From contig JAPDRO010000004.1 in NCBI GenBank assembly GCA_030247885.1, positions 248,001-312,000 of the forward strand: a stretch of 64,000 nucleotides of DNA. Reading direction: 5' to 3'. This document shows positions 4,016-60,867 of this stretch, in pieces. Numbering within the stretch: the stretch's first letter is position 1; the number at the start of each line of letters is the position of its first letter. The notes beneath the pieces were generated by a model, which was not told the origin of the DNA, did not search any database, and saw nothing but the letters and a program-made list of their open reading frames with translations. A program made the translations under genes and the position numbers. The DNA comes from Taxawa tesnikishii (nom. ined.) (Eukaryota > Ascomycota > Dothideomycetes > Dothideales).

Positions 4016-4879
4016 CTATTTTCCCGGGCTGCTCGCATCCGTGCTCCCCACCGCAGCATCAATGTGCAACTGATCAGCCGAGTCGACCGCCATCTGCAAG
4101 GATGGAATAGCCGACTGCAGCGCCGCAGTACTCGTGTTGCGGTAGATCTCGTAAAAATCTTCTACTGGGCCGGCGGAGCGCTCGACGGCTATGACGACGT
4201 AGAGCAATGCCCAGTCCAGGGCTTCGGACTGGTATGGGGATAGGATGAAGGTTGCTGTTAGGGGTCTTGTTAGTGAATGAGTTGATGGATGGGAGATAGG
4301 GAAGCGGGGTGAGGGATTGAGGGATTTAAGTTTGACTGAATATAGGGTTCGAAGGGTAGGGAGTGGTGTGGGAGAAGACGGGAAGACTTACAGGTACGCA
4401 TGGCGGCGGTGAGGAGGTTGAGGGCGTCGTAGACATCGCGGATGATATCGGCTTGCAAATTGACACCCTCGGCGAGCACTTCGGACGTCTCACTCGCGTC
4501 CAGCGTACTGTATTCTCTCATGATGTTGCAGATATCGCTGGCGCTGCGGAACGCGGCGTGGTAGAAGTGCAGGGCGATTCTGTTGATCTGCTGCGATACT
4601 TCGAGCACGCTCTCGTCGGTGATGTTGGTTCCCGGAAAATATCGGATTTGTCCATAACCCATCGACAAGGGTGTTCGAGGCTGTTTCGCGCATCCATCCA
4701 TGCCCAGGTGTAGTCTTCGGCATGGTCCTCGATGTATGGTCCTGTAGTGATACTGGACGCTGCAAGCTGTCAGTGAAGACAACAGTAATGGACGCGTGCC
4801 GCTCACACGTAGTTGATGCCATCGGCGCTGCTGTCACGTATCCGACCAGAGCCAGTTGGAGCACTCCGTTGAGCTTCAT
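4016..4879 (-). CDS. Secreted protein of unknown function (one frame break)
   Basis: The start at 4879 gives a signal peptide (MKLNGVLQLALVGYVTAAP). Exons in transcript order are 4879-4807, 4759-4392 and 4254-4016. Introns 4806-4760 (GTGAGC...CAG) and 4391-4255 (GTAAGT...CAG) are clean. The protein would be 226 residues, helical in character, with an N-glycosylation site (NITD). Within exon 2 the reading frame changes at the A run 4636-4639 (TTTT on the coding strand). One extra base there restores continuity from KSDIF into PGTNIT and makes the total length divisible by three. I recognise no family; small secreted effector-like proteins look like this, but that is only a resemblance. Confidence 0.6.
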
Positions 4880-5465
4880 ATTGCTGGTAGTAGAACGCCG
4901 GTCAAGTATAGCAGGGGCAGACTTATGGTTACTTGACGGCACACCGGGGGTCGACGGGCAGTATATGGAGTGGACTGTTTATCCCCGTCTTGTGTATCCC
5001 GGCATCAACATGCGGGCAACAAACTTTTGATAGAGTCATATTCTCAATGCGAAACTCTGCAGGAACCCAAAATCCGTCTATTGACTGCTTCTGATCATGA
5101 CGTTCCCAAGCGGAAAGAAACCCCGCAAGGTAACGAGCTACCGACAGACGCATGTCAAAGTAGAGAGGCGCGCTTGACCTTGGTATATCTGTTTGAGCTT
5201 GCCGGGCAAGCGTACCCATAACGCGTTGCGTAGTATTTGCCCTACTCATCGCATTGAGTTTAGGCTATCACATGTTTAAGGGAAGTAGATTGCTTTTTTT
5301 GAGAAATGTCGATATGCACGCTCCTTTTTCCGGTGGGTCCATTGAGTTTGTTGTTTGTTGAAAGTAAAAAGACGTTGGGCTGCGCAGAACCCTTCATCGC
5401 GACTGCGAAGCTTCTGGTATCCAAGAGTTTACTGTACCACAGCAGAACGAATATTGGCTGATCGG
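4880..5465. other. Intergenic, promoter of secreted protein and 3' flank of BMT2
   Basis: No supported feature beyond flanking regulatory sequence. Confidence 0.6.
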
Positions 5466-6335
5466 TTACTTAAATGTTATAGAAAAGTTGTTCCTGGTTG
5501 GTCCGGGATTGACTTCGCGCTTTGGAAATGATAATCGCTTTGCAGCTGCTGCATGGTCAAAACGCCACAGATAGTAAATGAGCTTCGACGTCAACTTCCT
5601 CTGGATACTCGTATAGCCCAACGCGTTCATGACGTCTGTGAGAAGCGCTTCGTCCACGTATCGAGAGTTGGTAACGCACGGGGCCGGTAAGACAAGGAAT
5701 AGACTAGGAGCAAACTTGCTGGCATCCTGGAGGTCCATGGCAACTCGCCGCAAAAACTGACAAGTCCTTTGCAACATCTGACCCCTGCCCGGCGCATCTG
5801 GAACGTAGTTGACCACGAGAGACAGAGAGATGATGTCGAATGCTTCGTCCCTAGATCTGGGCAAAGGGCGCATCATGAAGTCCTGCTGTTCAATACCCTC
5901 TGACTGCGAGTTCAGATCGATGCGGGCCACGTCGAAGAAGCCGGATTTGGAGCAGGCGTTGGACACGGATAGAGACCCAACCTCCAACATTCGCAGTTTG
6001 AATCCTTGGTTCTTCAATGCAGATAGTGGTTCCCGGAGCCAGTCGAGCAAGACCCTCGAAGTGTCGCCGCCTCGCTCGTCGGACTGACCTTGAATGCTGG
6101 CTTGCTGATAGCTTTTCAACCCACCACGTTCTTCGATTTGTTTCCTTAAAGAGGCAGCAACCTCTTCATCGCCAGCACGAACAGCGCTTGCGAGAGCTTT
6201 ATTGAGCTGATGATGTCCACGGATCAACGTTCTTGTGGCCTTGGATGACAGGGAAGCGGCAGGTTTGTGGACTGCTGGCGGTCTGCCATGGGACAGGCTC
6301 GTTGACTTCTGCCGCTTCTTCTTGGACGTAGCCAT
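5466..6335 (-). CDS. BMT2: 25S rRNA adenine-N1 methyltransferase Bmt2
   Basis: Single-exon gene of 289 residues. The lysine-rich N terminus (ATSKKKRQKS) fits nucleolar targeting. A Rossmann-like SAM-binding segment (MLEVGSLS) is followed by ARIDLNSQ and the family-typical DFMMRPLP, then a SLSLVVNYVP strand. The C terminus is the conserved YLWRFD region followed by a basic tail. Yeast Bmt2 (337 aa) makes m1A2142 in 25S rRNA. The protein is shorter than yeast but contains the whole catalytic core. It is divergent from ribosomal protein uL23, with only 273 bp between the start codons. No frame break. Confidence 0.9.
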   Translation of the reverse strand: MATSKKKRQKSTSLSHGRPPAVHKPAASLSSKATRTLIRGHHQLNKALASAVRAGDEEVAASLRKQIEERGGLKSYQQASIQGQSDERGGDTSRVLLDWLREPLSALKNQGFKLRMLEVGSLSVSNACSKSGFFDVARIDLNSQSEGIEQQDFMMRPLPRSRDEAFDIISLSLVVNYVPDAPGRGQMLQRTCQFLRRVAMDLQDASKFAPSLFLVLPAPCVTNSRYVDEALLTDVMNALGYTSIQRKLTSKLIYYLWRFDHAAAAKRLSFPKREVNPGPTRNNFSITFK

Positions 6336-6608: not shown

Positions 6609-7300
6609 ATGGCACCAAAGAACACCACTGCCGCCAAGGGTACGATTCGAATATCTGCGCCTGATCAGAATGCGCAACATTGCGTTGCATGACCAGCACT
6701 CAGAGAAGCCCCTTCTTTACATAGCGAAGGAATCACTAACACATCAACAGGCAAAGGCTCCAAGCCCTCTGCTAAGGCCTCTGCTGCGGCCAAGGCCACC
6801 CTCCGCGGTGTAAGGACACAATAGTGGCGTGTCAGCACTCCCATCGCTGACGGCCTTTTCAGGTCAACTCGCACAAGGTCCGCAAGGTTCGCCTGTCGAC
6901 CACCTTCCACCGCCCGAAGACCCTTCAGCTCTCCCGCGCACCAAAGTACCCGCGCAAGAGCATCCCCACGAGACCCGCCTCGACCAGCACAAGGTCATCA
7001 TCCACCCAGTCAACACTGAGTCCGCCATGAAGAAAATCGAGGAGAACAACACCCTCGTCTTCATCGTCGATGTCAAGGCGAACAAGAGGCAGATCAAGGA
7101 GGCTCTGAAGAAGCTCTACGATGTGGACACCATCAAGATCAACACCCTGATCAGGTATGATTTTGCGAAAAATATTCAAGCGAAGGAGCACCGGCTAATA
7201 CGTGATTGACAGGCCCGACGGCTCCAAGAAGGCCTACGCCCGCCTGACTCCAGACGTTGACGCTCTTGATATTGCTGCCACCAAGCTCGCCATTGTTTAG
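6609..7300 (+). CDS. RPL25: 60S ribosomal protein uL23 (L25), one frame break
   Basis: Exons 6609-6639, 6751-6809, 6863-7154 and 7213-7300. The short first exon is typical of ribosomal protein genes. Family landmarks are [47 protein letters not shown] and a C terminus in KLAIV. uL23 sits at the peptide exit tunnel and docks SRP and nascent-chain factors. Within exon 3 the frame changes at the C run 6964-6967. The conserved sequence runs [12 protein letters not shown] only if one C is restored; the length is then 156 residues. Because this gene should be essential and single-copy, the break is almost certainly a sequence error. Confidence 0.95.
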
Positions 7301-8821: not shown

Positions 8822-10823
8822 ATGTTGAACTCTATTTTCTCTTTCTCCACTATCGCAGTGGCCCTCTCCGCTCTGCCCAACGTCCAAGCAGCTGTATCGA
8901 GCTCGGGATGCGGAAAGGTCCTCGATGCTTCGCTGAAGAAAGGCGATGGCGCCGGAACCAGCAATTCCTTGATCTTTACTACCTTCAACGGCACGCAGCG
9001 CACTTACCTGCTCCACATCCCGACCACCTACAGCACCAACACTCCGCTTCCTCTTCTGTTCGCATTCCACGGTCGTAGTGAGAGTGGTGCTCAGATGGAG
9101 CAGGAGTCTAAGCTGTCTGGACAATATGCTAACCCTGGCGTAATCGTGGTCTATCCTGACGGCATTGACAAGCAGTGGCAGGGTGACCCAGCCGCTAGTG
9201 GCTACAACGATGTCGGATTTGTGCTGGAGCTGATCGGTCAACTGGAGACGGAATTCTGCATTGACACCTCGAGGATCTACTCCAGTGGTCACTCAAATGG
9301 TGGTGGTTTCAGCATCAATGTGCTGGCCTGCGACCCCGTTGCTTCCACGAAGATCGCCGCTTTCCATGGTAACTCCGCGGCCTGCTACCAGGGCACCACA
9401 GATGCGAACTGCAACGGAGATACTGTACCCATCACCTGCAACGCCGGCCGCAAGAACATCCCCATCTTGGAGACCCACGGTACCGCTGATGGCACGATCG
9501 ACTACAATGGCGGTCCTCGCCGTTCGAGATGTCTGCCCAGTATGCCGCACTACATGACGGAATATGCCAAGCGTGATATTGTGGGTGACACTTCCGGCGC
9601 CAACGACACCTCGTACATGTACGGAGGGAATGTCACAGTCTACCAATGGGGTGCTGCTGCGGGTCTCAAGGGCATCGTAACCCATTACAGGATCAACGGT
9701 ATGGGACACAACTGGCCATCCATCACCGGAGGCAACTACTTTGATGGCGCTACACTAGTACACAACTTCCTCACTCAATACTCTCTCGGTGATGCTGCAT
9801 CAAACTCTGCTACTGCATCAAGCATAGCCTCAGGCGCATCAATGAGTGGACCACCGGTAGCAACCATTTCGAAATCGTCAAGCGCTTCGTCGGCACCCGG
9901 CACTTCGGGCTCGAAAGCATCTAGCAGCACATCATCATCACCCACTTCCAAGGCGTCAAGTGCCACGGCAACCCTCAGCAGCTCTCAAGCAAGCAGCACC
10001 AAAGCCTCGAGCACCTTCACTCCCTCTGCATCCTGTCCATCCGGCCAAATCGCTTGCCCCACCCCTGGCGCCGTGATCTGCATAGGCAGCTCGCAGTATG
10101 GTATCTGCAACACGGACAATTGCGCCATCCCCCAGCCTCTCGCCGATGGCACCCAATGTACCTCCGACCACATCGTCTGGAGCGTCTCAGGCTCGAGCAG
10201 CACCGGTGTGTCCACCACCAGAGCCGACAACACCAAAGCCGCAAGCACCAAGCCCCCAAGCTCGTATTCCAGCATCGTCTCCTCCTCCTCCGCCGCCGCC
10301 GCCGCCACCAGCTCCCTCTGCCCGGCCAAGAACGGAACCTCGTTCACGTCCTCGAGCGGACACACCTACACCATCCTGTGCGGCGTCGATAGCGCCGGTT
10401 CCTATTTCGCACCCGGCGGTTATAAGACCTTCGAGGCCTGCATCTCGCTCTGCAGCACGACGGCAAACTGCACCAGTGTCGCATACAACGGCCAATGCTA
10501 CCTCAAATCCGCCGCCAAGGGCCTCGTCGCGGATCGGCCCGGCATCGCCATCGCGCTGCTGCAGCCGAGCTGCCCGCGCGACGACGGGACTACGTATATG
10601 GATGCGCGGGGGTCAATTGGAAGGTGAGCTGTGGTGCGGATACCACGGGTGCTCTGCTGAAGGGGCGGGCGTCAAGTACACGAGCCTGGCGGGGTGTGTG
10701 GAGTTGTGCGGGCGGACGGAGGGGTGTGGACATGTCACGTATACGGGGGCTTGTTACTTGAAGGGTGCGGTGGGGAAGATGGGGAAGAGCGAGATTGCTA
10801 GTGTTGCGGTCAGGCTGGAGTGA
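8822..10823 (+). CDS. Secreted CE1-type feruloyl esterase with CBM-like and two PAN-like modules (two frame breaks)
   Basis: Signal peptide 1-23 (ends NVQA). The alpha/beta-hydrolase domain has the FHGRSES oxyanion region, the GHSNGG nucleophile (Ser158), Asp223 in GTADGT and His296 in GMGHNW. This is the family of fungal feruloyl esterases related to PHB depolymerases, which cut ferulate esters from plant xylan. A long Ser/Thr linker follows, then a cysteine-rich unit (CPSGQIAC ... YGICNTDNC ... GTQC) resembling CBM52-type carbohydrate-binding sequences, then two PAN-like repeats each ending in CYLK. The second repeat is readable only across two frame breaks, at the G runs 10608-10612 and 10662-10665. 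One base added at each gives 667 residues ending at 10823. Without them the protein would stop at 10627. Confidence 0.85.
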
Positions 10824-10871
10824 TGGCGGGATAAAAGGGTAATTGATGATGGATGGGCGGGTTGCGGACAG

Positions 10872-10890
10872 CCCCCCCCCCCCCCCCCCC
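10872..10890. repeat. Poly-C tract
   Basis: Nineteen consecutive C bases just 3' of the esterase gene. The exact length is doubtful given the homopolymer errors elsewhere in this sequence. Confidence 0.9.
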
Positions 10891-13465: not shown

Positions 13466-15182
13466 ATGGCGAATTCGTAAGTGTCCGCAATCCGAGAAGC
13501 CACAACAACACTAACAAGTGTTGCTTCTCCAACCCTCTCCGAATACTCTGTTGACAGTGTATACAGTCTTGCGTCGGCATGGTCTAATTTCTGGCATGCC
13601 ATGACCTCCAACGACCGCCATGCCTCCCCGAACTCCCCTACAGAACCGGTCAACACGTTCCACTGTCCCAGAGCCGCCATGCGCCCCTCACCCACGTTGC
13701 GACCAGCGGCATCGAGTCGCGGACCGACCTCAGCTACAACGGACAAGAAATCGATTCTGCACACGGCTTTCTGCCCAGCAACGGACCCCTGTCGCCCGCT
13801 TCACCATACTCTCCCGGCATGAGGTCATCCATGCAGCGCCAGCGGAGTTCCAACGACGGTGCCTTCAAAGCCAACGCCGGCATTTCTGGAGACGTTCAGA
13901 TGCAGAGCTTCAGCGAAGGCCTTCCCCCACCTCCGCCTGTCTCCCACACCTGGAAACGCATCGATCGCTGGCTCGAGGACAACTATGAAGAGCTCCAGGA
14001 GAACCTCTGCGAAGGCTGCACACAAAACGATCTCAACGAGCTTGAGCATGAGCTGGATTGTACACTGCCGCAGGATGTGCGCGAGTCGTTGCAAATACAC
14101 GATGGCCAAGAGCGTGGTGGCAGGCCGACTGGTGTGGTCTTCGGATGTATGCTTCTGGACTGCGAGGAGATCGTGCAAGAGTGGCACAACTGGCGGAAGG
14201 TCAATGAAGAGTACCTTCGCGAGCAGCGGAACTACCTGAGCCCTCAAGTGCCACTCAAAGCATTTGCTGGCGCTTCTTCATCTTCAGCGGCCGCACAACC
14301 CGTACAACAGCCCCCAAACCCGAATTGGCGCCAAGATCTTGCGGCCAAGCAGGACTCGCAACCTCCGAACGCCATCCAAAAGCCTATGTACACCCTGCCT
14401 GGATCCCTCTTGCACGCGACTGGGGCGGAAACAACATCTGCGTCGACCTCGCGCCCGGTCCCACCGGAAAATGGGGTCAAGTCATCATTTTCGGTCGTGA
14501 CTACGACTGCAAATACGTCGTTTCGCGGTCCTGGGCCGCATTCCTCGCACAAGTCGCTGACGACATGAGCACCGACAGATGGTGGATCGAAGAGGAGACC
14601 CACGAGCTCAAGCTGCGCGAGTTCAAGCAGCCGGGTGTCGAGCCCGCGTACCTTGACATTCTCCGCTGGCGCGCCGACCAAAAGTACGGTCGCAAGCAAG
14701 GACCGAAGAGACGGCCAGGACAGGGATTGAGAATCAACTCGAACGTGTCAGCGCAGATGAACGGCTTCTCGCCATACGGCAGCCCGAACGTCGGCAACGA
14801 CGAGCGTGGCCGCTCTCCCTCGCGCTTCAACGGCAAGCAGCCCGTGACATCGAGCCCACGCATGAACGTCAGCAGCCCGCTCGCCAGAGTGACCGAGGAG
14901 CTCCCATCTAGCGTCAAGGTGCACGACTACGCCAACGCTCGGAGCCACGCCGCCAAGCTGGAGAAACTCGTCAGCATCGACTCGCCCTTGCCACCCGACA
15001 ACACCATGGACTCTGTGCTGGAGCACGAGGACCCGCGGAAGAAGACGAGCCTGGACGGCTCCGCCAGCAGCGAGCAGAGCTCAGCCAAGGACTCGAAAAT
15101 GGACGCGTCGCCCGCTGGTGGGAACGACAAGGACGGACCGAACGCGGCGGGCGCCGGAGAGATGAAGACGGTGGAGATATAG
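13466..15182 (+). CDS. SMI1: Cell-wall regulator Smi1/Knr4 (two frame breaks)
   Basis: An 11-nt first exon (13466-13476) is joined to 13558-15182 through an 81-nt intron. The N terminus FWHAMTSNDRHASPNSP, the GLPPPPPVSHTWKRID segment, the SMI1/KNR4 domain (DCTLPQDVRESLQIHDGQ, MLLDCEEIVQEW) and the second half (GGNNICVDLAPGPTGKWGQ, LRWRADQKYGR) are typical of the filamentous family. In yeast Knr4 couples beta-glucan and chitin synthesis to the cell-integrity MAP kinase pathway. Breaks lie at the C run 13635-13638 and the A run 14378-14381. One base restored at each gives 545 continuous residues. The C-terminal third is a disordered Ser/Asp/Lys-rich tail. Confidence 0.9.
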
Positions 15183-16145: not shown

Positions 16146-16735
16146 ATGGCCGAAAACCTAAACGCAAGACCGTCGCTAGTCCACACGCTCAACCCGCGCA
16201 CCCTCCGCGACGTCTCCCCCATTTACTCACACATCACACACGCACGCACGCGGAGCCCATGCCGCCTCATCTTCACCGCCGGCCAAGTCGGCGCCCACCC
16301 CGACGGCACCGTCCCACCCAACCGCCAAGACCAGATCGACCTCGCGTTCGCAAACCTGCGCGCCTGCCTCGCCGCCGCCGGCGCCTCCCCAAGGACGTCC
16401 TCCACGTGCGATACTACCACGTCGACTACGACCACGCGCGGAAACTGCACCTGCGACCCCTGCTGGCGTTCCTGGACGGGCACAGACCGTGCGTCACGGG
16501 CGTCGGGGTGGCGAAGCTGGCGCGGCCGGAGTACGTGTTCGAGGTCGAGGTCGTGGCTGTGGTTCCGGAGGAGGGTGCGGGAGGCTGTGGGAGTGAGGGG
16601 GAGGGCGGTGGTGGTGGTGGTGGTGGTGGTGGTGGTGGTGCGAGGTGGTTCGATTCTTTGCTTTCAGGGTGCTTTGTGGAGGTGCTGCCGCCTATGCTGT
16701 GCTGGCCGGAGCCGCTAGGTTGCATTACGCTGTGA
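16146..16735 (+). CDS. RidA/YjgF-family protein with polyglycine C terminus (one frame break)
   Basis: The RidA-like core is clear: LIFTAGQVGAHPDGTVP, QIDLAFANLRACLAAAGASPKDVLHV, then GVGVAKLARPEYVFEVEVVAVV. RidA proteins hydrolyse reactive enamines and imines formed by PLP enzymes; some fungal relatives have other or unknown roles. The frame changes at the C run 16387-16390. One C restored joins AAGASP to KDVLHV and gives 196 residues. After the normal end of the fold (VVPEE) the frame continues through about a dozen glycines encoded by a GGT microsatellite plus about 40 further residues. That tail may be an artefact of the reading frame or a missed intron. Confidence 0.75.
16606..16639. repeat. 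GGT trinucleotide microsatellite
   Basis: About eleven GGT units within the 3' part of the RidA-like frame, encoding polyglycine. Confidence 0.9.
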
Positions 16736-17132
16736 AGGACTGATGATGCTGCGGAGAGGAGGCGGCATTGGGAGATTTTGGTCCGGCTTTTTCTGGTCCT
16801 TTTGGTTTCGGCGTGGAGGAAATGGAATATCAGCCATGTGGCCGCTCCGGCGGCGAAGATCGTGGTGAGAGCTGCTGAGTCACAGTGAGTTCAGGACACC
16901 CTTATGGGCAGGGGCGTGTGTGTGTCAGTAATGAAGCTGTCGCTGATACTGCCGAGAGCATAGCTATCGAGTGGAAGCTGCATGAAACACTGTCTATAGT
17001 CCCGGATAGGCACTTATAGTTCCCTGATTCCAAGCAACAAGCGGATTACGACAATGTAGAGCGACAAGAATAGTTAAGAAGGACCTTTTTCTTTATTCTA
17101 GTATCATCAATCATCTACACCACTCGAGCGAG

Positions 17133-17140
17133 CGTCTAGT
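17133..17140. repeat. Left target-site duplication of MITE
   Basis: CGTCTAGT, matching six of eight positions of the right copy at 17272-17279. Confidence 0.55.
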
Positions 17141-17271
17141 CAGGGTGGGCAATGACTGAATATTCATCATTATAAAGCACTGGATAACAACTGAACATTC
17201 AGTGTATTCAGTGTAACTAGTTGTTATTCACTTCTTTATAATGTATAAACATCCGTGCATTGCCCACCCTG
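17141..17271. mobile_element. hAT-like MITE, 131 bp
   Basis: The ends are perfect 14-bp inverted repeats: CAGGGTGGGCAATG at 17141-17154 and its complement at 17258-17271. They are flanked by an imperfect 8-bp duplication (CGTCTAGT at 17133-17140, AGCCTAGT at 17272-17279; 6 of 8 match). The CAGGG end and 8-bp target with a central TA are hAT features. The interior is AT-rich, unlike its surroundings, and forms a near-complete palindrome (ATTATAAAG against CTTTATAAT, GGATAACAACT against AGTTGTTATT). There is no coding capacity, so it would need a transposase in trans. Confidence 0.75.
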
Positions 17272-23885: not shown

Positions 23886-26800
23886 ATGGCCCGGCGAACC
23901 AGTACTCGCAACTGTATGCCTTTTTCCGACACCCATCGCTAGAACAACATATCACCTAGCCTCTGGACCATTCACTGACAATTCACGACAGTAGCCTCAC
24001 AGGGCCAGCCCCTTTCCGAGCAGTTACCTCCGCGAGCAACGAGACGCCAATCTTCCAGAGTATCCGGCACCATTCCTGCAACAACAGACAAGGCGTCATC
24101 TTCAGAATCAGACATTGACGACGGAATTGCGACACCCCCAGTCAAACCACGACTGTTGAAAGAGGTTTCCATACCAGCCATGGCTCTCGGCGTCAAGCAC
24201 ACCAGATCCGGACGCTACTCTGCAGCCAGCCCGATGTCCATCTCGGACGAAGACACACCGATGGAGTACGACACGCCAGCCACCAGCATCACCGTCACCC
24301 CAGAAGCCTCCTTGAACGGCAAAATCTCCACAAAGCGCAAGAGAAGCCGTCTGAGCGAAGAATCTCGTATGGACGACATTTCAGATGACTTTGCGTTGGC
24401 TCAGGCCTTACAAGAGGAAGAATATGCGCAAGCAGACCAGTCGGGCAAGCGCGTGAAGAAGAGTAAGGCGTCGAGCAAGACATTTGAAGTTGAGGACTCA
24501 GATGCGGAGGAGGGTGTGGAGGACTTGGAGTCGGATGACCTTTCTTCTGCCATGTCGCTGGACGGTGACGACTTCTCCATCCCGTTCAAGAAGCCAGCCG
24601 TGAAGTCTGGAAGGAAGAGCGCACCTATTTCCGTGCCGGAGACCGACGACGACGAGGATTACGAAGTCGGCTTGTCCAAGGCAAGAGCTGGGAAGAAGGC
24701 TGTCCCGGCTCGAGCGACCAACTCCCGCAAGACTGGCAAGACTGCTGGCACTCTCGAACCCACCATTTTAGACTCGGAGAGCGAGATGTCGGAGTTCATC
24801 GAGGTGGACTCTGGGGACGACTTCGCTCCAGAAGACGCATCGGTCGACCAAGATGAAGAAGATTCGGAGGATGACGCGCCATTGGCCAATCGTAGAGTGA
24901 GCGCCGTGGCAGCTGCAGATGTAATATCCATCTCTTCGGGTACGGCTGGCTCGAGCGCAGCAACACCACGCAACCCTCGATCGAAAGGATTCAGACGCCG
25001 CAGGGGCCAGCAAAATCTCCAGGACATCGACCTGGAAGAGATCATCAACGGCCAACTCCACGGGAGGAAGTACAGGGAGCGCAAGAAGCTTGAAAGAGCG
25101 CATCCGTCAATCAAGACCATGTGGGATGATCTCAAGGAGATCCCCATCATCAAGCCCGTTCAGGCCCAGCAACCTGCGTACATCAATCGGAAGCTGAAAT
25201 CGTTCCAGCTTGAAGGGCTCGATTGGATGACCAGGCAAGAAAAGACACAGTACAAGGGCGGCTTGCTGGGTGATGAGATGGGTATGGGCAAGACCATCCA
25301 GGCCGTGTCCCTCATCATGTCGGACTACCCACAGAAGCAGCCTACCCTTGTCTGCGTTCCACCTGTGGCGCTGATGCAATGGTCGAACGAGATCAATGAG
25401 TACACAGACGGAAGGTTAAATGTGCTTGTCTATCACGGTCAGAATTCTAAGGTCAAGAAGATGACCGTAAAGGATCTGAAGAAGTACGACGTCATCATGG
25501 TCTCTTACAACGGCCTAGAATCGTTGTATCGCAAAGAGACCAAGGGCTGGTCTCGTGGGGAGGACATCATCAAGGAGGACTCGCCGCTTCACGCTATCCA
25601 TTTCCACAGACTGATCCTCGACGAGGCCCACAGCATCAAGTCGCGCACAACCGGTGTTGCACGTGCTTGTTTCGCGCTCAAGGGTACCTACAAGTGGTGC
25701 TTGTCTGGTACCCCCGTCCAGAACCGCATTGGCGAGTTTTCTCTCTCCTCAGGTTCCTGGAAGTCCGACCATTCGCAGATTATTTTTGCAAGAGATGCCC
25801 TTGTTCAATGCTTCACTGGTCGCTCGACGACAAGCACATGTGTCATGCCTGCGGTCATGCTGGTATGGAGCACGTGTCTGTCTTCAATCAGGAGCTGCTC
25901 AACCCGCTTACTCAGTCGGACGACAAGAAGCAGCGCGAGAAAGCCATGGACAAGCTTCACATGATCACTGCTCGTATCATGCTGCGTCGCATGAAGCGCG
26001 ACCACACCAGCTCAATGGAACTGCCGCCCAAGGAAGTCATCGTTCACAACGAGTTCTTCGGAGAGATTGAGCGCGACTTCTCCTCCAGCATCATGACCAA
26101 CACTACCCGGCAGTTCGACACATATGTCTCACGTGGTGTCATGCTCAACAACTACGCCAACATCTTCGGTCTGATCATGCAGATGCGGCAGGTCGCCAAC
26201 CACCCTGACCTGCTTCTCAAGAAGCACGCACAAGAAGGTCAGAACGTGCTTGTCTGCAACATCTGCGACGAGCCTGCAGAAGAGGCGATCCGTTCTAAGT
26301 GCAAGCACGACTTCTGCCGCTCATGTGTCAAGAGTTATGTGCAAACTTACGAGTCGTCCGGTGGTGAAGCCGATTGTCCCCGCTGCCATATCGTAATCCA
26401 TCCCTTCCCTCTAGTTCGTCTGCATGCTAATGAACTTTCAGCCTTTGTCTATCGACTTTGATCAGCCCGATATTGAGCAAGATGAAGATGTGGTCAAGAA
26501 GAGCTCCATCATCAACCGCATCAAGATGGAGAACTGGACTTCGTCTACGAAGATCGAGATGCTGATCTATGATCTGTACAAGCTTCGTAGCAAGAAGCAG
26601 ACCCTGAAGTCTATCGTCTTCTCTCAGTTCACTTCGATGTTGCAGCTCATCGAGTGGCGTCTCCGTCGCGCGGGCTTCAACACAGTCATGCTGGATGGCA
26701 GTATGACGCCGATACAGCGTCAGCGCTCCATCGAGTACTTCATGAACAACCCCGATGTCGAAGTGTTCCTGGTGTCCCTCAAAGCTGGCGGTGTGGCGCT

Positions 26801-32495: not shown

Positions 32496-33108
32496 ATGAA
32501 CTACGGCGGCGGCAACCCTTACGGAGGCGGTCTCAGAGGCGGCATGGCGGGCGGGATGGGCGGTGACCCACGCCTAGCAATGCTGATGGCTATGTCCGGC
32601 CAAGCCAGAGGCGGCAGCAGCATAGGCGGCATGGGCGGTATGAGCGCCATGAGCGGCTTGGGAGGCGTGGCAGGCGTGGGGGCGACCCGCGCTCTGGTAC
32701 GATGGCTGTAGTGGTGGGTCCAGGCGGAGATCCACGCGCCGCTCTATATCTCGGAGGAGGAGATCCACGCGCTGCCCTATATACCGGAGGCGGAGATCCA
32801 CGCGCCTCCCTATATCCCGGAGGCGGCATGGGCGGAGGTCTTGGAGGGCTCGGCGCTGCTTACGGAGGAGCAATGGGTGGTATGGGTGGCATGGGGACCG
32901 GTATGGGGGCGGTATGGGAGGCGACCCGCGCTTAGCAATGCTCGGCCAAGGTGCAGGTGGCATTGGAGGCGGTATGGGAGGCAGTATGAGAGGTGGCATG
33001 GGTGGAGGTATGGGTGGAGGTATGGGTGGAAGCCTCGGAGCATGGCGTGGTGGAGGATTTGGTGGCTTGGGATCTGGTATAGGAGGCGGCTACGGTGGAT
33101 ACTTCTAA
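32496..33108 (+). CDS. Gly/Met-rich repeat protein with GGDPR units, gene 2 (two frame breaks)
   Basis: Starts MNYGGGNPYGGG and ends GGYGGYF. GGDPR repeats appear in succession: GGDPRLAMLMAM, then three copies of GGDPRA(A/S)LY at 18-residue or shorter spacing, then GGDPRLAMLGQG. They are embedded in GGM-rich sequence. The repeats are spread over three frames that join if one G is restored at each of two G runs (32678-32682, 32905-32909). The total is then 204 residues. There is no signal peptide and no known domain. The composition resembles low-complexity structural or phase-separating proteins, but that is only an impression. Confidence 0.6.
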
Positions 33109-35750: not shown

Positions 35751-36896
35751 CTACTGCACCTTCTTCGCGTCGTTGGGGCCATAACTCCTGTCGTCTTTTC
35801 CCTCAACCTCCTTGACCATCTTCTCCATCTCCTTGGCTTGTCTGTTCCACTCGTCGGCACACATCTTGGTATCGCGTCTGAACAGCTCGTCGTTGGGCTT
35901 CCGGTAGCTGCCACCGAGACGGTCCCACAGTGTGGTGAACTGTCCATAATTGTAGTTGAAGTAGAGGTGGTGCATCGTGTGGCAAGCAGCCCCGTTGATG
36001 ATCGGGCTGTTGGCAACATATTCTCCGTCGTGAATCATTACCGTCCAGATCTGGATGAAGGTGAAGAGGGCGATGTAGGCGAACTTCTGCAGAGGGAAGA
36101 GGAATGGGAAGATGTGGTAGGGGAGGGATTGCGCGTAGCCGTCGAGAGGGTGGAAGGCATGCGACGCGAAGGGGCTAGGCATAATCCACTTGTGATGGGG
36201 CTTGTGGAGGTGCTTGTAGACGAGAGAGTGGTGGAGACCACGGTGGATCCAGTAAATGAAGAAGTCGGTGAAGGCTACGAAGAAGGGGAACTGGAGGTAG
36301 GTGTACCAGCCACCAAGGTTCCAGGCAGAGCCCTCAGGCAATGTGTCGTAGATCTTGCCGTAGCCGCGCACCTCGAGAAGGAACCAGGGGACTGTCATGG
36401 CGGCCATGACAGGGATAGCGCGAAGTGTCTGCTTAATCTCCATGCGCATCTGGTTCTTTAGGTACTTCGGGTGTTGAAAGGTGGTCTTGTCGAAGACGAA
36501 GATGTAGGAGAGGCCGGCGAAAAGAAGTAGGTAACGAGGCCAAAGATCCTGCGTTCCGCGTCAGTCGCATATCCACGTTGAGAGCTTCTCGAGGACCGGC
36601 GCATACCATGTGGTAAGGTACAGACTGACGGCTTGTCTGTAGATGTTGTCTCGAGGCCACCTGCTCATGAAAGCATAGCTGCTTGGCTGGACGGAGAAGT
36701 ACTGGCTGGCTGGCTCAAACTTGTACACGGCGGGCGTGCCCAATTCGCGCATGCTTGACCACGTCGCGTTGTGTTCAGCGACGCCTGCGAAGTCGCTGAC
36801 GCTGCTGAAGGCCAGCTGCTTGGGTGTGAGAGGGAGGACATTGGCGTAAAGTGCATCGTACACGTAAGTGTCGAGGAGCTCGAGTACGACGTCCAT
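35751..36896 (-). CDS. ERG3: Sterol C-5 desaturase Erg3 (one frame break)
   Basis: Exons 36896-36607 and 36548-35751 (intron 36606-36549). The N terminus is [16 protein letters not shown] and [12 protein letters not shown] marks the family. Three histidine boxes coordinate the di-iron centre: HRGLHH, HKPHHK and HTMHH. Erg3 is an ER membrane enzyme that introduces the C5-C6 double bond in ergosterol synthesis; its loss changes azole response. Just after the splice the frame shifts at the A run 36520-36523 (TTTT on the coding strand). One base restored gives [21 protein letters not shown] split across the site and 362 residues in all, aligning without gaps with my recollection of the Aspergillus protein. 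Confidence 0.93.
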
Positions 36897-43169: not shown

Positions 43170-43960
43170 TCATCCCTCAGCGTCGACTCCCGGATCCAGT
43201 ATCTGAATATCCAAACTCAAGTATCCCGTCCTCTTGAGCCCAATCAACCTGACCTCCCTCCCGCTCTTCTCCATCTCCCGATTCCACTCCTCAATCCACT
43301 TCTCCACACCATCCGCCTTCCTCTTCCCAACCGTCAGTCCAACATCATCCCACACACCTCCCGTCGCCACGCTCAGCACACCATCGATCCAGCTCCCCGC
43401 GCTCCAAGGCGTGTATGCTGCCTTCAGCCTCGCGTTCAACGTCTCCACCACGTTCCGGAACTCAGCCTCAGAGAGACAGTCCGAGAGCACTTCGGGATAC
43501 ACGTTCTGGTATGCCGGGTAAAGATCGCCGGACGCGAGCCAGTCCCGCTTGACCCGGATGATGCGCGTGCTGCTGTACAGAGGGGACGCGACGGGCACGT
43601 GTGGATTCGGATGCGGGAAACACGGGTGCTGTGGTCCCCACGGTAGCTCTCCGTGCCCTCCCACTCCTTCGCTCGGAGCCCGAGATGAGTCCCGTGTTGC
43701 AGTGTAGCGGTTGCCGTTAGGGCCCTGGCGCAGGACGTCGGTGAGAGAGCTGGGAGAAGCGGGGCGCATGGATTTCGAGGACGGTTTGCGGTTCATGGGG
43801 AGGGAGGCGCGCGAGGACGTGAGTGCAGAGAGTGCGCGGGTCCGGATTCGAGGTCATCCTGCGGGATCGGTGGTGGTTCGGGCCATTGTGTTGAGGGCGG
43901 TGGTTGGGAGGTCAGCTTTTGGGCGTCTTGGACGCCGGCGAGTTTGTTGAAGCTTTCCAT
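43170..43960 (-). CDS. ERF4: Ras palmitoyltransferase subunit Erf4 (Golgin A7/ERF4 family), one frame break
   Basis: The conserved block covers the second half: TRIIRVKRDWLASGDLYP, FYP-like QNVYPEVLSDCLSE, VVETLNARLKAAYTPWSAGSW and WDDVGLTVGKRK. The family binds the DHHC enzyme Erf2 to palmitoylate Ras at the ER/Golgi. The start at 43960 (MESFNKLAGVQDAQK) opens a Pro/Ser-rich N terminus that reaches the conserved part only across the G run 43797-43800 (CCCC on the coding strand). One base restored gives 263 residues. The internal ATG at 43796 would give a 208-residue protein without a break, so the longer start is an inference. Confidence 0.85.
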
Positions 43961-50612: not shown

Positions 50613-52282
50613 ATGAGTAGAGTACTGAACCACCTCAAGCTCGGCCAGATCAAAGGCGTCACAGAGCCTGGATCCTCGCTCCTCAAATTTCTTGGCATAC
50701 CATACGGCAGTATCCCGCAACGATTCGCTCGATCAACTCTCCTCACATCTCTTCCTTCGCACAGTAATGTCTTCGATGCAACCAAACCTGGTCCATCCAG
50801 CATACAGCCACATGAAAGTGTCAAGTCAGACGCGTCTGGAATCCCTATCCCGACGGACAATTTGCCGGACGACGAACCTCAAGCGGAGGACTGTCTGAAT
50901 CTTTCAATCACCCTTCCTGCTTCTCATGTACCCCAAGATGGCAGCAGTTCCGCTCAATCAGCTAAGAAAAAGCTACCCGTCCTGATATTCCTACACGGCG
51001 GCGCCTTCCTCCTCGGATCCGCAAACCGGCCGTACTACTCTGCCACCAATCTACTCCACCACGCACTCAAGCGCGATACGCCCGTTCTGTACGTCGCCGT
51101 AAACTATCGTCTGGGCGCACTCGGGTTCTTTCATAGCCCCGAAGCTGCCGACCTCGTACCTCCGAACAATGGCCTGCACGATCAGCTCGTCGCACTGGAC
51201 TGGATTCGCGACAACATTGAGGGCTTTGGCGGCGATGTGAATAACGTGACGATCCTAGGTCAGAGCGCTGGCGGCGAGAGCATCTCACTACACGCTGCGA
51301 GTGGGATGGAAAAGCCACTGTACAAACGCGCAATCATGTTCAGTGGCAGTCCTGTCACCATGCCAGCCAAGACGCCTAAGGAGCACGGGGAGAACTTCTA
51401 CGCTCAGGCGGAGCAGCTTGGCATCAAGACACAGGACGGTAACAAAAGAGAGACGCTCGTACGGTGGCAGAGGAAATGATCAAGACGGACGTGGAAAAGA
51501 TAAGGAAGCTCGGCTTTGTGGGCGCACCATGCACGAAGAGCGAGATGCTGCCGTACGACAAGCCTACCATGGAGATGATGCGGCAGGGCCAAAAGGTCAA
51601 GAAAAACTGGGTGGAAGCGCAGATTGTGAGCGCAGCCACGTACGACGGCGGCATCTCATACAACATGATTTCTGGCAATGACGAGAGGAAAGAGCACGCG
51701 CAAGGCTTTGATCACATCGCACGAGAGGTCTTGGGTGACGACAAAGGGAGGGAACTGTGCGATATTTACGGCATCACTACAAGCGATGCGGACCCAGAGG
51801 CTCTGAGAAAGATATGCCAATTCGAGAGTGATATCGGTTTCTTTGCCGGAGCTCTGAGTATGGCGGTGGGAGGTACACTGCCGACGTATCTGCAGCTTTT
51901 CGATCTCGGCAACCCATTCCCTGGCCCATTGCCGCAAGGCGAATTTGCTACCCATACCTTCGATATCATCAGCTTGCTAGGCGGAGCCCATGAAGACCGT
52001 TTGCCGTCAAATTACAGGCCCGTGGTCGCAGAATGGCGCGACACCATCCTGGATTTTGTGGTCAGCGGAAAAGCTCCTTGCACGGCTTTCGACAATCAGA
52101 ACCAGTCTGCTTTGATCGTGAATCAGAAGGGCGTGCGGGAAGTTGCAGGCGATGTATACCTGCAGGTTGACGGTCGCCGACGTGCAAGGTTGTTTGAGCT
52201 TGCGGAATCCGTGGCTGGTGAGGCCGGATGGGACAAATTGTGGACAGAGGTATGCAGACGGTGGTTGATGCAGGGTAAGTGA
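50613..52282 (+). CDS. Type-B carboxylesterase (one frame break)
   Basis: Starts MSRVLNHLKLGQIKG and has no signal peptide. Family marks are FLGIPYGSIPQRF, AEDCLNLSI, the oxyanion-hole LIFLHGGAFLLGSA, YRLGALGFFHSPE and the GQSAGGES nucleophile (Ser218). The likely catalytic His is in GGAHEDRLP. The frame shifts at the A run 51444-51447; one A restored joins DGNK to ARTVAEEMIK and gives 556 residues. The substrate is unknown. The last codons before the stop contain GGTAAGTGAG, which could be a splice donor, so a further small exon is possible. Confidence 0.82.
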
Positions 52283-52531: not shown

Positions 52532-53103
52532 ATGACACCTTCACGCTCGACAACTAGCATCATGCTATCCAGCACCGATGTTCCGCTCCAAACCAACCTG
52601 TTCCTTCAGCTTCCACCGGAACTGCGCAACTCGATATACGCCATGGTGCTCGTTAATGATAGCTCATGTTTAAAGGGCATTTGCTTCGTCAAACACAATC
52701 CTCAACAACCCGCTCCCGCTCGGACATGTCGCCAAATCCGCAACGAACTCCTCCCCTCTTTCTCGACTTCGTCGGCAAAAGCTCTTCCTACGTCTGGGTT
52801 CCCTTACACGGAAACCGGCCGGATGAAGTCATCAAGCCTCCAAATCGCAATTGGATGCTTGGAGCCGGAATCGGCGTCAGACACGTTCGGCTTCTTACCC
52901 GCGCTCGGGGTCGTCAAGTCAAGGTCAACTCCGACGAAGAGAGGACGGATGAGACTGCCTCTTGGAGCGATGGATATGGAGGTACCGAAGGAATTGCGAA
53001 AGCCTCACCTATCCTCTCTGAACCCCTTTCCAAGACCAGCGCAAGGCTAGTACATACACTGGTAAGAACATCTCACCACGCTACTGCTCACTGTCCTAGT
53101 TAG
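52532..53103 (+). CDS. 2EXR/F-box-like domain protein (one frame break)
   Basis: NLFLQLPPELRNSIYAMVL and ARTCRQIRNELLPLF are the hallmark of the 2EXR/F-box-like proteins that are abundant in Pezizomycotina and mostly of unknown function. The frame shifts at the C run 52753-52756; one C restored continues into LDFVGKSSSYVWV and gives 190 residues. A second in-frame ATG is at 52562. GGTAAGAAC near 53061 could be a donor for another exon downstream, so the 3' end is uncertain. Confidence 0.65.
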
Positions 53104-53580: not shown

Positions 53581-54772
53581 TCAAAACTCCAACTCCTCAA
53601 CCTCCATCCCGCACTCTACGCACGTCTTGACAGGTATCCCAGTCTCCGGGTTATCCACCGGCCTCCCCACTCATGCTCATGCTTGCCGCCAACTATCTTA
53701 TCACCAAAAGTGCCTCCCGCAATGCCTGCCTTACTCCTCTTGTACGCGTCCACCCTCGTCCTCTTCTTCAACTCGTTCAATTTGCTCTTGAACTTCGCCT
53801 CCTTCCGCCTTTTCGTCTCCGCCTGTCGTTTCGCGAACTCCTCATCCAGCGCTGCCGCACTACCCCACTTCTTGTCCGAGAAAGCGTATTCCTCGACCTG
53901 ATATCGCAGGAAAAGCATCATGTTGTTCCAGGTCGACTTGTGCGGATTCGGTTTCTCGAGATGCGGCAGGAGCTTCTCGTCTCTCAGTTCCGGGTCCGTG
54001 AGCAGGTAGTCTTCTTTGGCCTCCGTCTTGGTCAACAAGCTATACTTCTCCGGCACCTTCTCTTTGCAGCTATTGCACACTTGACAGCCGAAGATCTCGT
54101 CCCACTTCCAGTCAATCTCCAGACTTCCACATTCGTGACACTTCTTTGTCGCTGCTTCTGCCTTGCCCAGTGCGTTGATCCCCGGCTCGTAAGGGCCTGC
54201 TTTCTGCTCCCGTAGCTTCTTGAGCAGTTGTGTGCGCTCCCACTCCTTCAGTGTCATGTTCGCAGGCTTCTCGTCCTGGTTCGGTGTATGCAGCGCCCTG
54301 TTGAACGGATCGTCGTCTGCGGTCAAGAAACCGCCCTTCGTATCCGTCATCTTGCTGAAGTCGTACTCGACGAATTTCTGGAACTTCTTCGCCGCCTGAA
54401 TCCCGTTGTCGCGTGGCTTGCTGAGGCCATCTTTGCCCTGTGCGGCTGCACTTGGCGTGTTTCGAGCATCGCGCTGGGTCGGAGGGACTGACGACGTGGA
54501 TATAGAGCTATGTGGTCGCTTTTGTCCTGCGAGAAAGCCCGATGGTGTCCGGTTCGGTGCAGGCTCGTTGGAAGTGGCGAGTTGTTGCGCACGGAGTGCT
54601 TTGGCCTTGAGACGGGCTTCTTCCTGGAAACAGTGTCAGCATTCAAGTACCACTGCGCACTGATCGTAACACTCACCATCCTGCGAACCTGTTCCGGAGT
54701 CATGGGCGATTGAGGCATGGTGCCTGGTTGCGCCGCTCGAGGTGGCGTCGCGGGCCTTTGCGTGTCTACCAT
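53581..54772 (-). CDS. RAD14: DNA damage recognition protein Rad14/XPA (one frame break)
   Basis: Exons 54772-54677 and 54623-53581 (intron 54676-54624). XPA landmarks: zinc finger CHECGSLEIDW ... CQVCNSCKEKVPEKY, KTEAKEDYLLTDPEL, LPHLEKPNPHKSTWNNMMLFLRYQVEEYAF (three adjacent pieces) and RRKEAKFKSKL. The protein binds kinked DNA and organises the NER pre-incision complex. The frame changes near the 3' end at the C run 53665-53668 (GGGG on the coding strand). One base restored gives HEWGRPVDNPETG, then TCVECGMEVEELEF and a stop at 53581, the family C terminus. Without it the protein would end in an unrelated tail. Total 379 residues. Confidence 0.93.
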
Positions 54773-55202: not shown

Positions 55203-56389
55203 TTACTCCTCCTTGACGCCACCACGGCCAGATCTCTCAGCGGCCTCAATGCTCTTCTTGTCGGTCTTGATGCCAGAGTCGGCGCCTCCCATGCCCATGA
55301 AACCGCCCTGAGCCTTCCATGGCCTCTTAAGGTCACCAGCGGCTGGCTTTCCGAAAAGGTGAACCTGTACAAGGTTGCCCTCGAATGCGCCCTTAAGTGG
55401 GAGAATAGACTGGATGAGGAGGGGNNNNNNNNNNNNNNNNNNNNNNNNNNNNNNNNNNNNNNNNNNNNNNNNNNNNNNNNNNNNNNNNNNNNNNNNNNNN
55501 NNNNNNNNNNNNNNNNNNNNNNNNNNNNNNNNNNNNNNNNNNNNNNNNNNNNNNNNNNNNNNNNNNNNNNNNNNNNNNNNNNNNNNNNNNNNNNNNNNNN
55601 NNNNNNNNNNNNNNNNNNNNNNNNNNNNNNNNNNNNNNNNNNNNNNNNNNNNNNNNNNNNNNNNNNNNNNNNNNNNNNNNNNNNNNNNNNNNNNNNNNNN
55701 NNNNNNNNNNNNNNNNNNNNNNNNNNNNNNNNNNNNNNNNNNNNNNNNNNNNNNNNNNNNNNNNNNNNNNNNNNNNNNNNNNNNNNNNNNNNNNNNNNNN
55801 NNNNNNNNNNNNNNNNNNNNNNNNNNNNNNNNNNNNNNNNNNNNNNNNNNNNNNNNNNNNNNNNNNNNNNNNNNNNNNNNNNNNNNNNNNNNNNNNNNNN
55901 NNNNNNNNNNNNNNNNNNNNNNNNGCTGGGCCTTGTAAAGACCCTTGAGTTGCTGGAGATCGTAGGCGTGGTGGGTGGTGGTGACAGCCTTGGGCTCCTC
56001 AGTTGAGCCCATGGGTGCTGGCTCGACGTACTTGAGGACGGTCATGTCTGGTTGCTATCAGCACAGGCGCTAGTTTGTCTGTTGTGCAACGTGCGCGAAC
56101 ATACCCCTCTTTTTGTTGATCTGCTGCTGTGTGTAAAGGTAGATACCCAGGATGATAAGGTTGGAGACAACATAGAGTGCGCGCACTCCGTTCAGCACAG
56201 TTGGATCCTCGAAGGGCACCTTCTTCGAGGCCTGCATCATAAACCTGGTTTGACATTAGACGAAGATTCGGTGGTCCAGAGTAGGAGTCGCATACAGGAT
56301 GATGATAAGGTTGGTTCTGCCATTGTGTTAGCCAGCAGCGTCGCATTACAAAGCATGCTGCCCACGTACACTTGAGGACTGAGCGCCAT
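55203..56389 (-). CDS. PHO88: ER protein Pho88 (SND3), interrupted by assembly gap
   Basis: Exons 56389-56370, 56316-56296 (only 21 nt), 56244-56105 and 56047-55203, the last holding the N gap. Phases agree. The N terminus reads MALSPQVTNLIIIL and FMMQASKKVPFEDPTVLNG. Then NLIILGIYLYTQQQINKK and MTVLKYVEPAPMGS precede the gap; PLLIQSILPLKGAFEGNLV, HLFGKPAAGDLKRPWKA and KTDKKSIEAAER follow it. Pho88/Snd3 is an ER membrane protein of the SRP-independent targeting pathway, first named for phosphate uptake. By the family length only about 18 residues should be missing, so the 500-N run is much longer than needed unless an intron lies in it. Confidence 0.93.
55425..55924. other. Assembly gap, 500 N
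   Basis: Exactly 500 unknown bases, all inside the last exon of PHO88. The round length suggests a fixed-size placeholder, not a measured gap. Confidence 0.99.
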
Positions 56390-58822: not shown

Positions 58823-59402
58823 ATCAAAAGGTCGTCTGGAGAATACCGTAAGTGATCGCTCAGCATTCTCATCAAGCCAGGAGGTCCGTGGAAGATTGCT
58901 TGTCTGAACGTAAGGTGGAGGTTATTTCTCTCGTCCTCACACTTGAGAGCCTGCGGAGTGCCTCTTTGGTTGGGTACCCCGACCGACGGCCAGCCTGTCG
59001 AGCGCAATGCAGGCAATGGTCGTTTACATAGATGAGTATAAGCATTTCGTTTGCCTTGCATCAGCCTATCTCTTTTCCTTCGCACAGTGTGAATCTCTTC
59101 GTGAACTTGCATCATTTCGTTACCTCTTTCAAGCGCTGCCGACGTCATTGTGTGTTTGCATATGTGGCTCGTTGCCCAGACGTTCCCCTCTCAGAACACG
59201 CTGCGCGTCGCGCGCGCTGATTCACGCCGCTTCCACGACCTTCGCCGGATTTCGCGTCGCTGCGCTGCTTGGATTCCAAATGTAAGCCTCCCAGCGCGTT
59301 CTACTCGTCTATCGTTGCTCCGCTCCCATTTTGAAAGACTTTTTGCATCTTGCATTGTTGCATACACGAGAGCGCCTGGGTTATCAGACTACCACAGCCG
59401 CA
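58823..59402. other. Intergenic between tandem orphan genes A and B
   Basis: 580 bp with no supported gene. It presumably holds the promoter of gene B. Confidence 0.5.
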
Positions 59403-60867
59403 ATGTTTGCGGGCGTGTCGTCGCGAAAGTACAGCGGTCAACGGGCACGGGTCAACAAGCATAAACACTCGCGTCTTGACAACATGTCGGACGATCACGC
59501 TGAAACCCACAACATGTCCAACGCGGAAGGCAACGGCGACAGCATGGCCCTCTCTAAGCTCATCGACCGTGGTGCCCCAGCCGCACGCAGTCACCTCGTT
59601 TTCATCGAGGAAATTCTTGCGACCTCCGACCTTGGTTCAGACCCACAACAGAAGCTCAACGAGTTCGAGAACGGCTTGAGGGAACTGCTCAAGAAGTCAC
59701 CAGCGGACCCTTTCGTTGTCTACGATCTGGCCCTAGTCACCAAAGCCGCCCGCACATACCGTGTCAGTAACTTCGGTGATTGCTAGAAACTGCCTCGTTG
59801 CTGACTGAAGCAGCATACCCACATATGGTCCTTGAAGAAAGAAGAGACCGGTCACGAGGTCCTGAGCTTCCTCACGTTGGAGGAAGACGATACCAGGTCT
59901 ATTGAAACCATCGACCTTATCAAGAGCAAGTCGCCTACACCACAAAGCGATACTGGCGACCCTACCGTCCGAACTACTGCACTCAAGAAGCTACGTCAGC
60001 TTCAGATCGGCCGCAAAATCAAAGAATCCGACAACAAGGAAGCAGTCGACAAAGCCATCCAGCTCTTTGAGAAGATATTCTCTGCAGCGAGTCTTGTCCA
60101 CGTGAAGAAGTCCGCCACCCCAAGCACCAGGGTTCAAGACAGTACCATCCAGTCAGCCAATGCGAACACCCCCAATCTGTTCGATCCCGAGCTGAAGATG
60201 GCCCTAGCCCTTGTACAACAGCGTATAGGGAGGAACAAGAAGAATGAGGCTACGCTTGACACTAAGCACGGGCTTGCTAATCTCTTTGACGCTTTGGAAA
60301 GACACAAAAGAGATGCAAATCTTCCAGGCAGTGAGGTTCGGCAGATGCTGGAGAGAGAAGGGTACACCACCAGTGTCGGAACGTCGTGGGGCGATTTAGC
60401 ACACCAGTACTTCCTCAGCGAGCTTTGCAAGCAAACAGGTGAACCAAATATAAACCTTCGCTCGGAGCGACGCCGTGGTCAACCGCTCAGCATGTTAAAG
60501 GATGCCTATGGTACCAGCATTCTTCGTTTGGTCAATTGCGTGAGCAAGTAGGTACCATTCCATATTTACAATCTTCTCAACGACATGCTAACAAGACCTG
60601 TGCAAGGCAATTCGGGAGAACATCGACGAGCCAGCTTTGAGGGGTGAGGAGGTCACCTGCCCGCTCCTCCAGATGTCTCAGAAGGACATAAAGGCTCTGG
60701 ACCGTGCTGGCATGTTGCAGGCGCTAGGACTGCCGGAAGAACAATGTACTGCCGAGCACACCGATGCCGCGGATGACACCGATGCACAGTCCGATATTAC
60801 CCTCCCAGCGACCTTGACAGGTCCAGCTCCAAAACTCTGGGTCATGCCGGAACCGATCAAGAGTTGA
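59403..60867 (+). CDS. Orphan protein, tandem family member B
   Basis: Exons 59403-59762, 59814-60547 and about 60609-60867. The first intron (donor GTCAGT) is in phase. The second (60548 to 60608) occupies the same place as the gene A intron, after LVNCVSK, but its phases differ by one base. Matches to gene A: QLFEKIFSAASLVHV, MLEREGYTTSVGTSWGDLA, LSMLKDAYGTSILRLVN and EPALRGEEVTCPLLQMSQ. Another ATG at 59484 (MSDDHAETH) may be the true start. If one A is restored in the run 60831-60834, reading continues to 61163 through an acidic tail. Function unknown. Confidence 0.65.

What the first reader, a model, noticed from the sequence alone, without database searches (positions are those of the whole stretch)
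4636..60834. Systematic one-base homopolymer undercalls break at least sixteen reading frames
Sixteen breaks, all of the one-base-missing type, all in or beside short homopolymers, nearly all of 4-5 bases: 4636-4639, 6964-6967, 10608-10612, 10662-10665, 13635-13638, 14378-14381, 16387-16390, 25737-25740, 31030-31032, 32678-32682, 32905-32909, 36520-36523, 43797-43800, 51444-51447, 52753-52756 and 53665-53668; 60831-60834 is a further candidate. In each case the conserved sequence continues in the frame predicted by one extra base, and every repaired coding length becomes a multiple of three. The one-sided direction and the homopolymer context point to a sequencing technology bias, not biology. 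Any automatic gene set from this assembly will split or truncate these genes.
Basis: partly seen in the sequence, partly recalled or inferred. Interest (0 to 1): 0.75.

Follow-up and report, generated by a model that had tools for sequence, protein, structure and literature searches.

The report
Homopolymer sequencing errors in fungal assembly
Several ordinary fungal genes in this stretch look broken most likely because the assembly lost one letter in short runs of the same base, a known kind of sequencing error rather than biology.

Summary
The pattern holds, but the 17 sites are not equally supported. All 17 runs are printed at the given coordinates. The window reads as intron-bearing ascomycete DNA.

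Evidence on both sides of the break: 6964 (ribosomal protein uL23), 14378 (Smi1/Knr4), 16387 (RidA/L-PSP) and 25737 (SNF2 helicase) by domain matches in two frames; 32678 and 32905 by a repeat unit found in three successive frames; 10608 and 10662 by an internal repeat, where one gain instead of two losses is not excluded. 36520, 43797, 51444, 52753 and 53665 have a known domain on one side only. 4636, 13635, 31030 and 60831 rest on coding signal; 13635 may be an intron.

A codon-model parser without homopolymer information found, at penalty 8, 12 one-base losses and 5 gains; 11 of 12 losses lie within 136 bases of a listed site and 6 of 12 inside a run of four or more. At 99 control runs the frame mostly stays put.

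Best reading: homopolymer undercalling, nanopore-like. No reads were available, so the cause is inferred and the technology is a guess. Ordinary, but it matters for annotation.

The parts
4636..4639 (-). Candidate frame change in a small orphan gene whose start looks like a signal peptide by eye
   Evidence: coding score only (-1 best at all three flank lengths, by 0.2 at the shortest); no useful Pfam match in either piece; not found by the parser at penalty 8; weak
6964..6967 (+). Frame change inside ribosomal protein uL23 (L25/L23a)
   Evidence: Pfam L23eN in one frame ends at 6967 and L23 in another begins at 6991, 23 bases between; chain 7r81_Z1 is matched by pieces in the two frames that meet here; parser loss at 6966; strong
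10608..10612 (+). First candidate frame change in the PAN-like tail of a secreted esterase-like protein
   Evidence: -1 best at all three flank lengths; the short middle piece resembles PAN repeat 1 and the gene at 2843-3211 by eye; against: a BLAST match in one frame runs from 10635 across 10662, so one gain here instead of two losses is possible; not found by the parser at penalty 8
10662..10665 (+). Second candidate frame change in the same tail
   Evidence: downstream frame matches PAN repeat 1, 38% over 45 residues; codon score -1 at two of three flank lengths, level with +1 at one; same rival reading as 10608; not found by the parser at penalty 8
13635..13638 (+). Candidate frame change near the start of the Smi1/Knr4-like gene
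   Evidence: -1 best at all flank lengths, but a 113-base GT..AG intron could bridge it and the parser at penalty 10 used an intron ending at 13643; weak
14378..14381 (+). Frame change inside the SMI1_KNR4 domain
   Evidence: profile 1-74 in one frame to 14238, 69-125 in the next from 14373, both above the cut-off; parser loss at 14411; no bridging intron at the run; strong for the change, the exact place by reading the frames
16387..16390 (+). Frame change inside a RidA / L-PSP family protein
   Evidence: profile positions 19-63 and 64-121 meet at 16391 in two frames; each half alone is below the curated cut-off (E 1.3e-4 and 0.04); parser loss at 16387 kept at all five penalties; strong together
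25737..25740 (+). Frame change inside a SNF2 / RING / helicase protein (Rad16 type by recall)
   Evidence: SNF2 profile 1-171 to 25739 in one frame, 184-290 in the next from 25868, both above the cut-off; parser loss at 25822 at penalty 8; codon score at the run prefers no change at two of three flank lengths; four candidate introns would remove matched SNF2 residues
31030..31032 (+). Candidate frame change in a Gly/Arg-rich protein; place not settled
   Evidence: parser loss at 31166 kept at penalty 15; codon score at this run prefers no change at two of three flank lengths; no Pfam match in either frame; weak
32678..32682 (+). Frame change in a GGDPR-repeat protein
   Evidence: GGDPR units lie in frame 2 at 32559 and in frame 1 from 32678; -1 best at all flank lengths; parser loss at 32680 at penalty 8, but an intron at penalty 10; two candidate introns
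32905..32909 (+). Second frame change in the GGDPR-repeat protein
   Evidence: GGDPR units in frame 1 to 32789 and in frame 0 at 32917, the last sharing GGDPRLAML with the first in frame 2; -1 best at all flank lengths; parser loss at 32907 at penalty 8, but a gain at 32895 at penalty 10; three candidate introns
36520..36523 (-). Frame change upstream of a fatty acid hydroxylase (sterol desaturase type by recall) domain
   Evidence: -1 best at all flank lengths; domain downstream in one frame; parser loss at 36523 at penalty 8; upstream piece has no Pfam match
43797..43800 (-). Candidate frame change upstream of an Erf4 domain
   Evidence: Erf4 profile 1-116 complete downstream; parser loss at 43843 at penalties 6-10; codon score mixed (+1 best at two of three flank lengths); an ATG beside the run could be a start
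51444..51447 (+). Frame change in a carboxylesterase-family protein
   Evidence: COesterase profile 6-260 upstream; parser loss at 51445 at penalties 6-12; -1 best at all flank lengths, by 0.1 at the shortest; downstream half has no Pfam match and no useful PDB match; a 32-base GT..AG stretch would also fit, shorter than the scan's minimum
52753..52756 (+). Candidate frame change in a 2EXR-like protein
   Evidence: weak 2EXR match, E 0.0094, below the curated cut-off; codon score -1 best at two of three flank lengths; not found by the parser at penalty 8
53665..53668 (-). Frame change near the end of an XPA/Rad14-like repair protein
   Evidence: XPA_C (E 6.8e-26) and XPA_N (below its cut-off) upstream in one frame; -1 best at all flank lengths; two candidate introns; not found by the parser as a loss, and at penalty 6 as a gain at 53681
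60831..60834 (+). Candidate frame change in an orphan gene
   Evidence: -1 best at all flank lengths; parser loss at 60866 at penalties 6-12; no useful Pfam match

Best explanation
The organism's genes are most likely intact and the printed sequence wrong: the base caller or consensus step shortened short homopolymers by one base, and nothing later corrected it. Each loss moves the reading frame by one, so one protein appears as two overlapping open frames. Shown: frame changes at the best sites, their prevailing direction and their homopolymer setting. Inferred: that reads would contradict the printed lengths, and that the method was nanopore-like.
For: Two-frame domain matches at 6964, 14378, 16387 and 25737. 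Repeat units in three successive frames around 32678 and 32905. More losses than gains at each of five penalties and enrichment in runs. -1 best at 14, 13 and 16 of 17 sites against 5 of 99 control runs. Slippery heptamers at 0 of 17 sites. 17 sites over 29,245 modelled coding bases is about 0.06%, the same order as the under 0.05% total errors in a MinION bacterial assembly in which most indels were false deletions and the greatest number of deletions followed runs of four to five (PMC12007338, passages). In a nanopore-only ascomycete study roughly one-fifth of genes were incorrect after long-read polishing, and most errors seen were in homopolymers (PMC7500977, passages).
Against: No reads. 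The shortage of long runs is weak: coding 26 runs of 5 or more and 0 of 6 or more, but non-coding 73 and 10; runs of 19 C, 10 T and 8 C are printed, so runs are not simply capped. The D. coniospora paper found more insertions than deletions after polishing, the opposite direction. The parser's excess of losses is modest (12 to 5 at penalty 8, 20 to 16 at 6), 6 of 17 sites were not recovered at penalty 8, and at penalty 10 it explained the GGDPR gene by an intron and a gain. Codon score does not favour -1 at every site.
Confidence: 0.92

Rival explanations
1. Part of the list is ordinary gene structure: introns or alternative starts read as breaks (can be true of some sites beside the main reading).
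For: Candidate GT..AG introns of fitting length exist at 5 of 17 sites: 13635, 25737, 32678, 32905 and 53665. At penalty 10 the parser preferred an intron at 13635 and at 32678. The Tup1-like gene at 47834-49754 is parsed at penalty 10 with introns only. At 43797 an ATG lies beside the run.
Against: 12 of 17 sites have none in that scan, which covered 45-120 bases only; at 25737 the introns would delete matched SNF2 residues; at 6964 and 16387 the matched pieces leave no room; at 32905 the candidate introns would cut into or next to a repeat unit.
Confidence: 0.15
2. The genes are true pseudogenes that lost one base each by replication slippage.
For: Slippage in short runs also gives one-base losses (general knowledge).
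Against: Many unrelated neighbours are hit, including a ribosomal protein that is essential in yeast (recall); at the four best sites the matched pieces are conserved on both sides. Substitution rates were not measured.
Confidence: 0.03
3. The printed sequence is right and the cell corrects it by programmed -1 frameshifting or transcriptional slippage.
For: The best-supported changes go one way.
Against: 0 of 17 sites have an XXXYYYZ heptamer within 9 bases; runs of four or more are common (549 in the window), so the run alone is a poor signal.
Confidence: 0.02

Closest known systems
Homopolymer deletion errors in nanopore assemblies (Kastor study, PMC12007338; passages seen)
   Same: Most indels are false deletions, the greatest number after runs of four to five bases; genes become frameshifted
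   Different: Bacterial R9.4 data checked with reads and references; here no reads, and C/G runs (11 of 17) outnumber A/T (6 of 17), while that study found more at A/T
Nanopore-only assemblies of Drechmeria coniospora (PMC7500977; passages seen)
   Same: A fungus; homopolymer indels break many conserved genes until short-read polishing
   Different: There polishing gave more insertions than deletions; here losses prevail
Nanopore assemblies of filamentous ascomycetes (PMC9453082; passages seen)
   Same: Homopolymer indels in conserved genes at low coverage
   Different: Errors fell with coverage in three genes examined; coverage here is unknown

Membership tests
Homopolymer-undercall artefact | Frame changes mainly of one direction | tested here: met
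   losses exceed gains at five of five penalties, 20:16 to 3:0; -1 best at 14, 13 and 16 of 17
Homopolymer-undercall artefact | Located in or beside homopolymers more than chance | tested here: met
   6 of 12 parser losses against 6.4% expected, gains 0 of 5
Homopolymer-undercall artefact | Spread over unrelated, otherwise conserved genes | tested here: met
   uL23, Smi1/Knr4, RidA, SNF2, XPA and others
Homopolymer-undercall artefact | Long runs depleted in the assembly | tested here: inconclusive
   coding 0 of 26 runs of five or more reach six, non-coding 10 of 73; no fungal control genome available
Homopolymer-undercall artefact | Raw reads show longer runs than the consensus | not testable with these tools
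   no reads, and no whole genome held
Programmed -1 ribosomal frameshifting | Slippery heptamer XXXYYYZ at the site | tested here: not met
   0 of 17
Pseudogene | Mixed disabling lesions and loss of constraint | tested here: inconclusive
   domain matches persist on both sides at 6964, 14378, 16387, 25737, which speaks against decay; lesion types in full and substitution rates were not measured

The most novel reading that the evidence does not exclude
The organism really carries these shortened runs and restores frame by one-base transcriptional slippage or RNA editing at short homopolymers across many nuclear genes.
Probability: 0.01. Interest if true: 0.95.

Novelty: not a real feature. Interest (0 to 1): 0.1.

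Why it matters
Automatic annotation of this assembly would split or truncate a number of genes in 64 kb and may report false losses of housekeeping genes (and of a sterol-desaturase-type gene, whose apparent loss could be over-read). Anyone using the genome for gene content, pseudogenes or phylogeny should first have it polished with accurate reads.

Tried and rejected
Considered and rejected as the general cause: introns (enough for the Tup1-like gene as parsed at penalty 10, and possible at 13635, not at the strong sites); programmed frameshifting; true decay. Considered: unmerged contig ends at the 500-N gap as a second copy for comparison; self-BLAST found no duplicate there.

Led nowhere: Pfam at E up to 10 on ten pieces gave no family for 8 and one chance-level match each for 2 (E 0.28 and 0.5); nine of the ten are frames at or near 4636, 31030, 36520, 51444 and 60831, the tenth is an open frame on the strand opposite the Erf4 gene; no such pieces were sent for 13635, 52753 or 53665. 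The PDB search with one frame of the carboxylesterase region gave one match, at E 0.96. No whole genome is held. Papers on a 500-N gap convention were seen as a listing only, so the gap is not used as evidence. Rfam at gathering thresholds found nothing, tRNA search nothing.

Full report
What the window is. It holds intron-bearing genes of ascomycete type: uL23 (best chains 7r81_Z1 and 7olc_LX; that these are Neurospora and Chaetomium is recalled), a Tup1-like repressor, XPA and Pho88, Bmt2 and Erf4, SOR/SNZ, PINIT/MIZ. The species is not identified.

The observation. I searched the three frames of each region apart, with stops read as X, against Pfam. Four genes match on both sides in frames one step apart. 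In uL23 the L23eN domain ends at 6967 in one frame and L23 begins at 6991 in another, with 23 bases between, and the same PDB chain is matched by pieces in both frames. In the L-PSP protein profile positions 63 and 64 meet at 16391, although each half alone is below the family's cut-off (E 1.3e-4 and 0.04). In Smi1/Knr4 the two matches are 134 bases apart with slightly overlapping profile positions; that the change lies at 14378 rests on reading the frames and on recalled Smi1 sequences. In the SNF2 protein 128 bases lie between the matches; they read as coding in the second frame, and that this is a Rad16-type insert is recalled.

Repeats. In the GGDPR gene the unit lies in frame 2 at 32559, frame 1 at 32678, 32723, 32756 and 32789, and frame 0 at 32917; the first and last share nine residues. 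In the esterase-like gene (its enzyme family is recalled; one search gave only weak PAN matches) the frame after 10662 matches the first PAN-like unit, 38% over 45 residues. The net change of frame in that tail is therefore shown, but the BLAST match begins at 10635, before the second run, so one gain near 10608 instead of two losses remains possible; codon score favours a loss at 10608 at all flank lengths and is level or in favour at 10662.

Five sites have a domain on one side: 36520, 43797, 51444, 52753 and 53665. The 2EXR match at 52753 and the XPA_N match are below their cut-offs. The downstream half of the carboxylesterase gave no Pfam match and no useful PDB match. Four rest on coding signal: 4636, 13635, 31030, 60831.

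The parser. A dynamic-programming parser with codon scores, introns and equal penalties for one-base loss and gain gave losses against gains of 20:16, 12:5, 7:2, 6:1 and 3:0 at penalties 6, 8, 10, 12 and 15. It had no homopolymer information, but its first codon table was trained on stretches of this window, some of which I had cut at listed sites. At penalty 8, 11 of 12 losses lie within 136 bases of a listed site and 9 of 12 within 46; the twelfth, 9798, is in what reads as a Ser/Thr-rich linker. Six of 12 are inside a run of four or more, against 6.4% of coding bases within 3 of one; none of the 5 gains is. Six listed sites were not recovered at penalty 8: 4636, 10608, 10662, 13635, 52753, 53665. 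At penalty 10 it used an intron at 32676-32723 and a gain at 32895 in the GGDPR gene, against my reading.

Site scores. With flanks of 60/60, 90/90 and 120/150 bases the -1 change wins at 14, 13 and 16 of 17; at 99 control runs with 90-base flanks it wins at 5. It does not win at 25737 at two lengths, where domain matches carry the case.

Cause. Introns fail at 6964 and 16387 for want of room and at 25737 because they would remove matched residues. Slippery heptamers are absent at 17 of 17 sites. Decay is unlikely for a ribosomal protein with both halves conserved. What remains is undercalling. Passages from papers agree in kind: in a MinION assembly the greatest number of deletion errors follow runs of four to five bases (PMC12007338); in a nanopore-only fungal study roughly one-fifth of genes were incorrect after long-read polishing (PMC7500977); homopolymer indels occur in ascomycete genes at low coverage (PMC9453082). 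Against a simple reading, the Drechmeria paper saw more insertions than deletions after polishing, and the long-run shortage in this window is weak.

Verdict. Observation partly confirmed: four sites two-sided by domains, two by repeats, two by a repeat with a rival reading, five one-sided, four weak. Interpretation supported, technology not shown. Interest low: a known kind of artefact.

Noticed in passing
window 17130-17282: Imperfect inverted repeat, 75% identical over 136 aligned bases, folding far better than shuffles (z -8.5), with CTAG near both ends by eye; may be a small MITE-type element.
   Followed up: partly
window 55425-55924: A 500-N gap at the edge of a partial Pho88 match, profile 118-183; self-BLAST shows no duplicated flanks.
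   Followed up: partly
window 10872-10890: A run of 19 C just downstream of the esterase-like gene; the window has 10 runs of six or more.
   Followed up: no
window 31000-31790 and 32496-33105: Two neighbouring Gly-rich orphan genes, the second with GGDPR repeats; no Pfam match on the + strand of the region.
   Followed up: no
window 2843-3211: A second PAN-like open frame (weak Pfam match) that weakly resembles the tail of the esterase-like gene at 8822-10820 (32% over 37 residues).
   Followed up: partly
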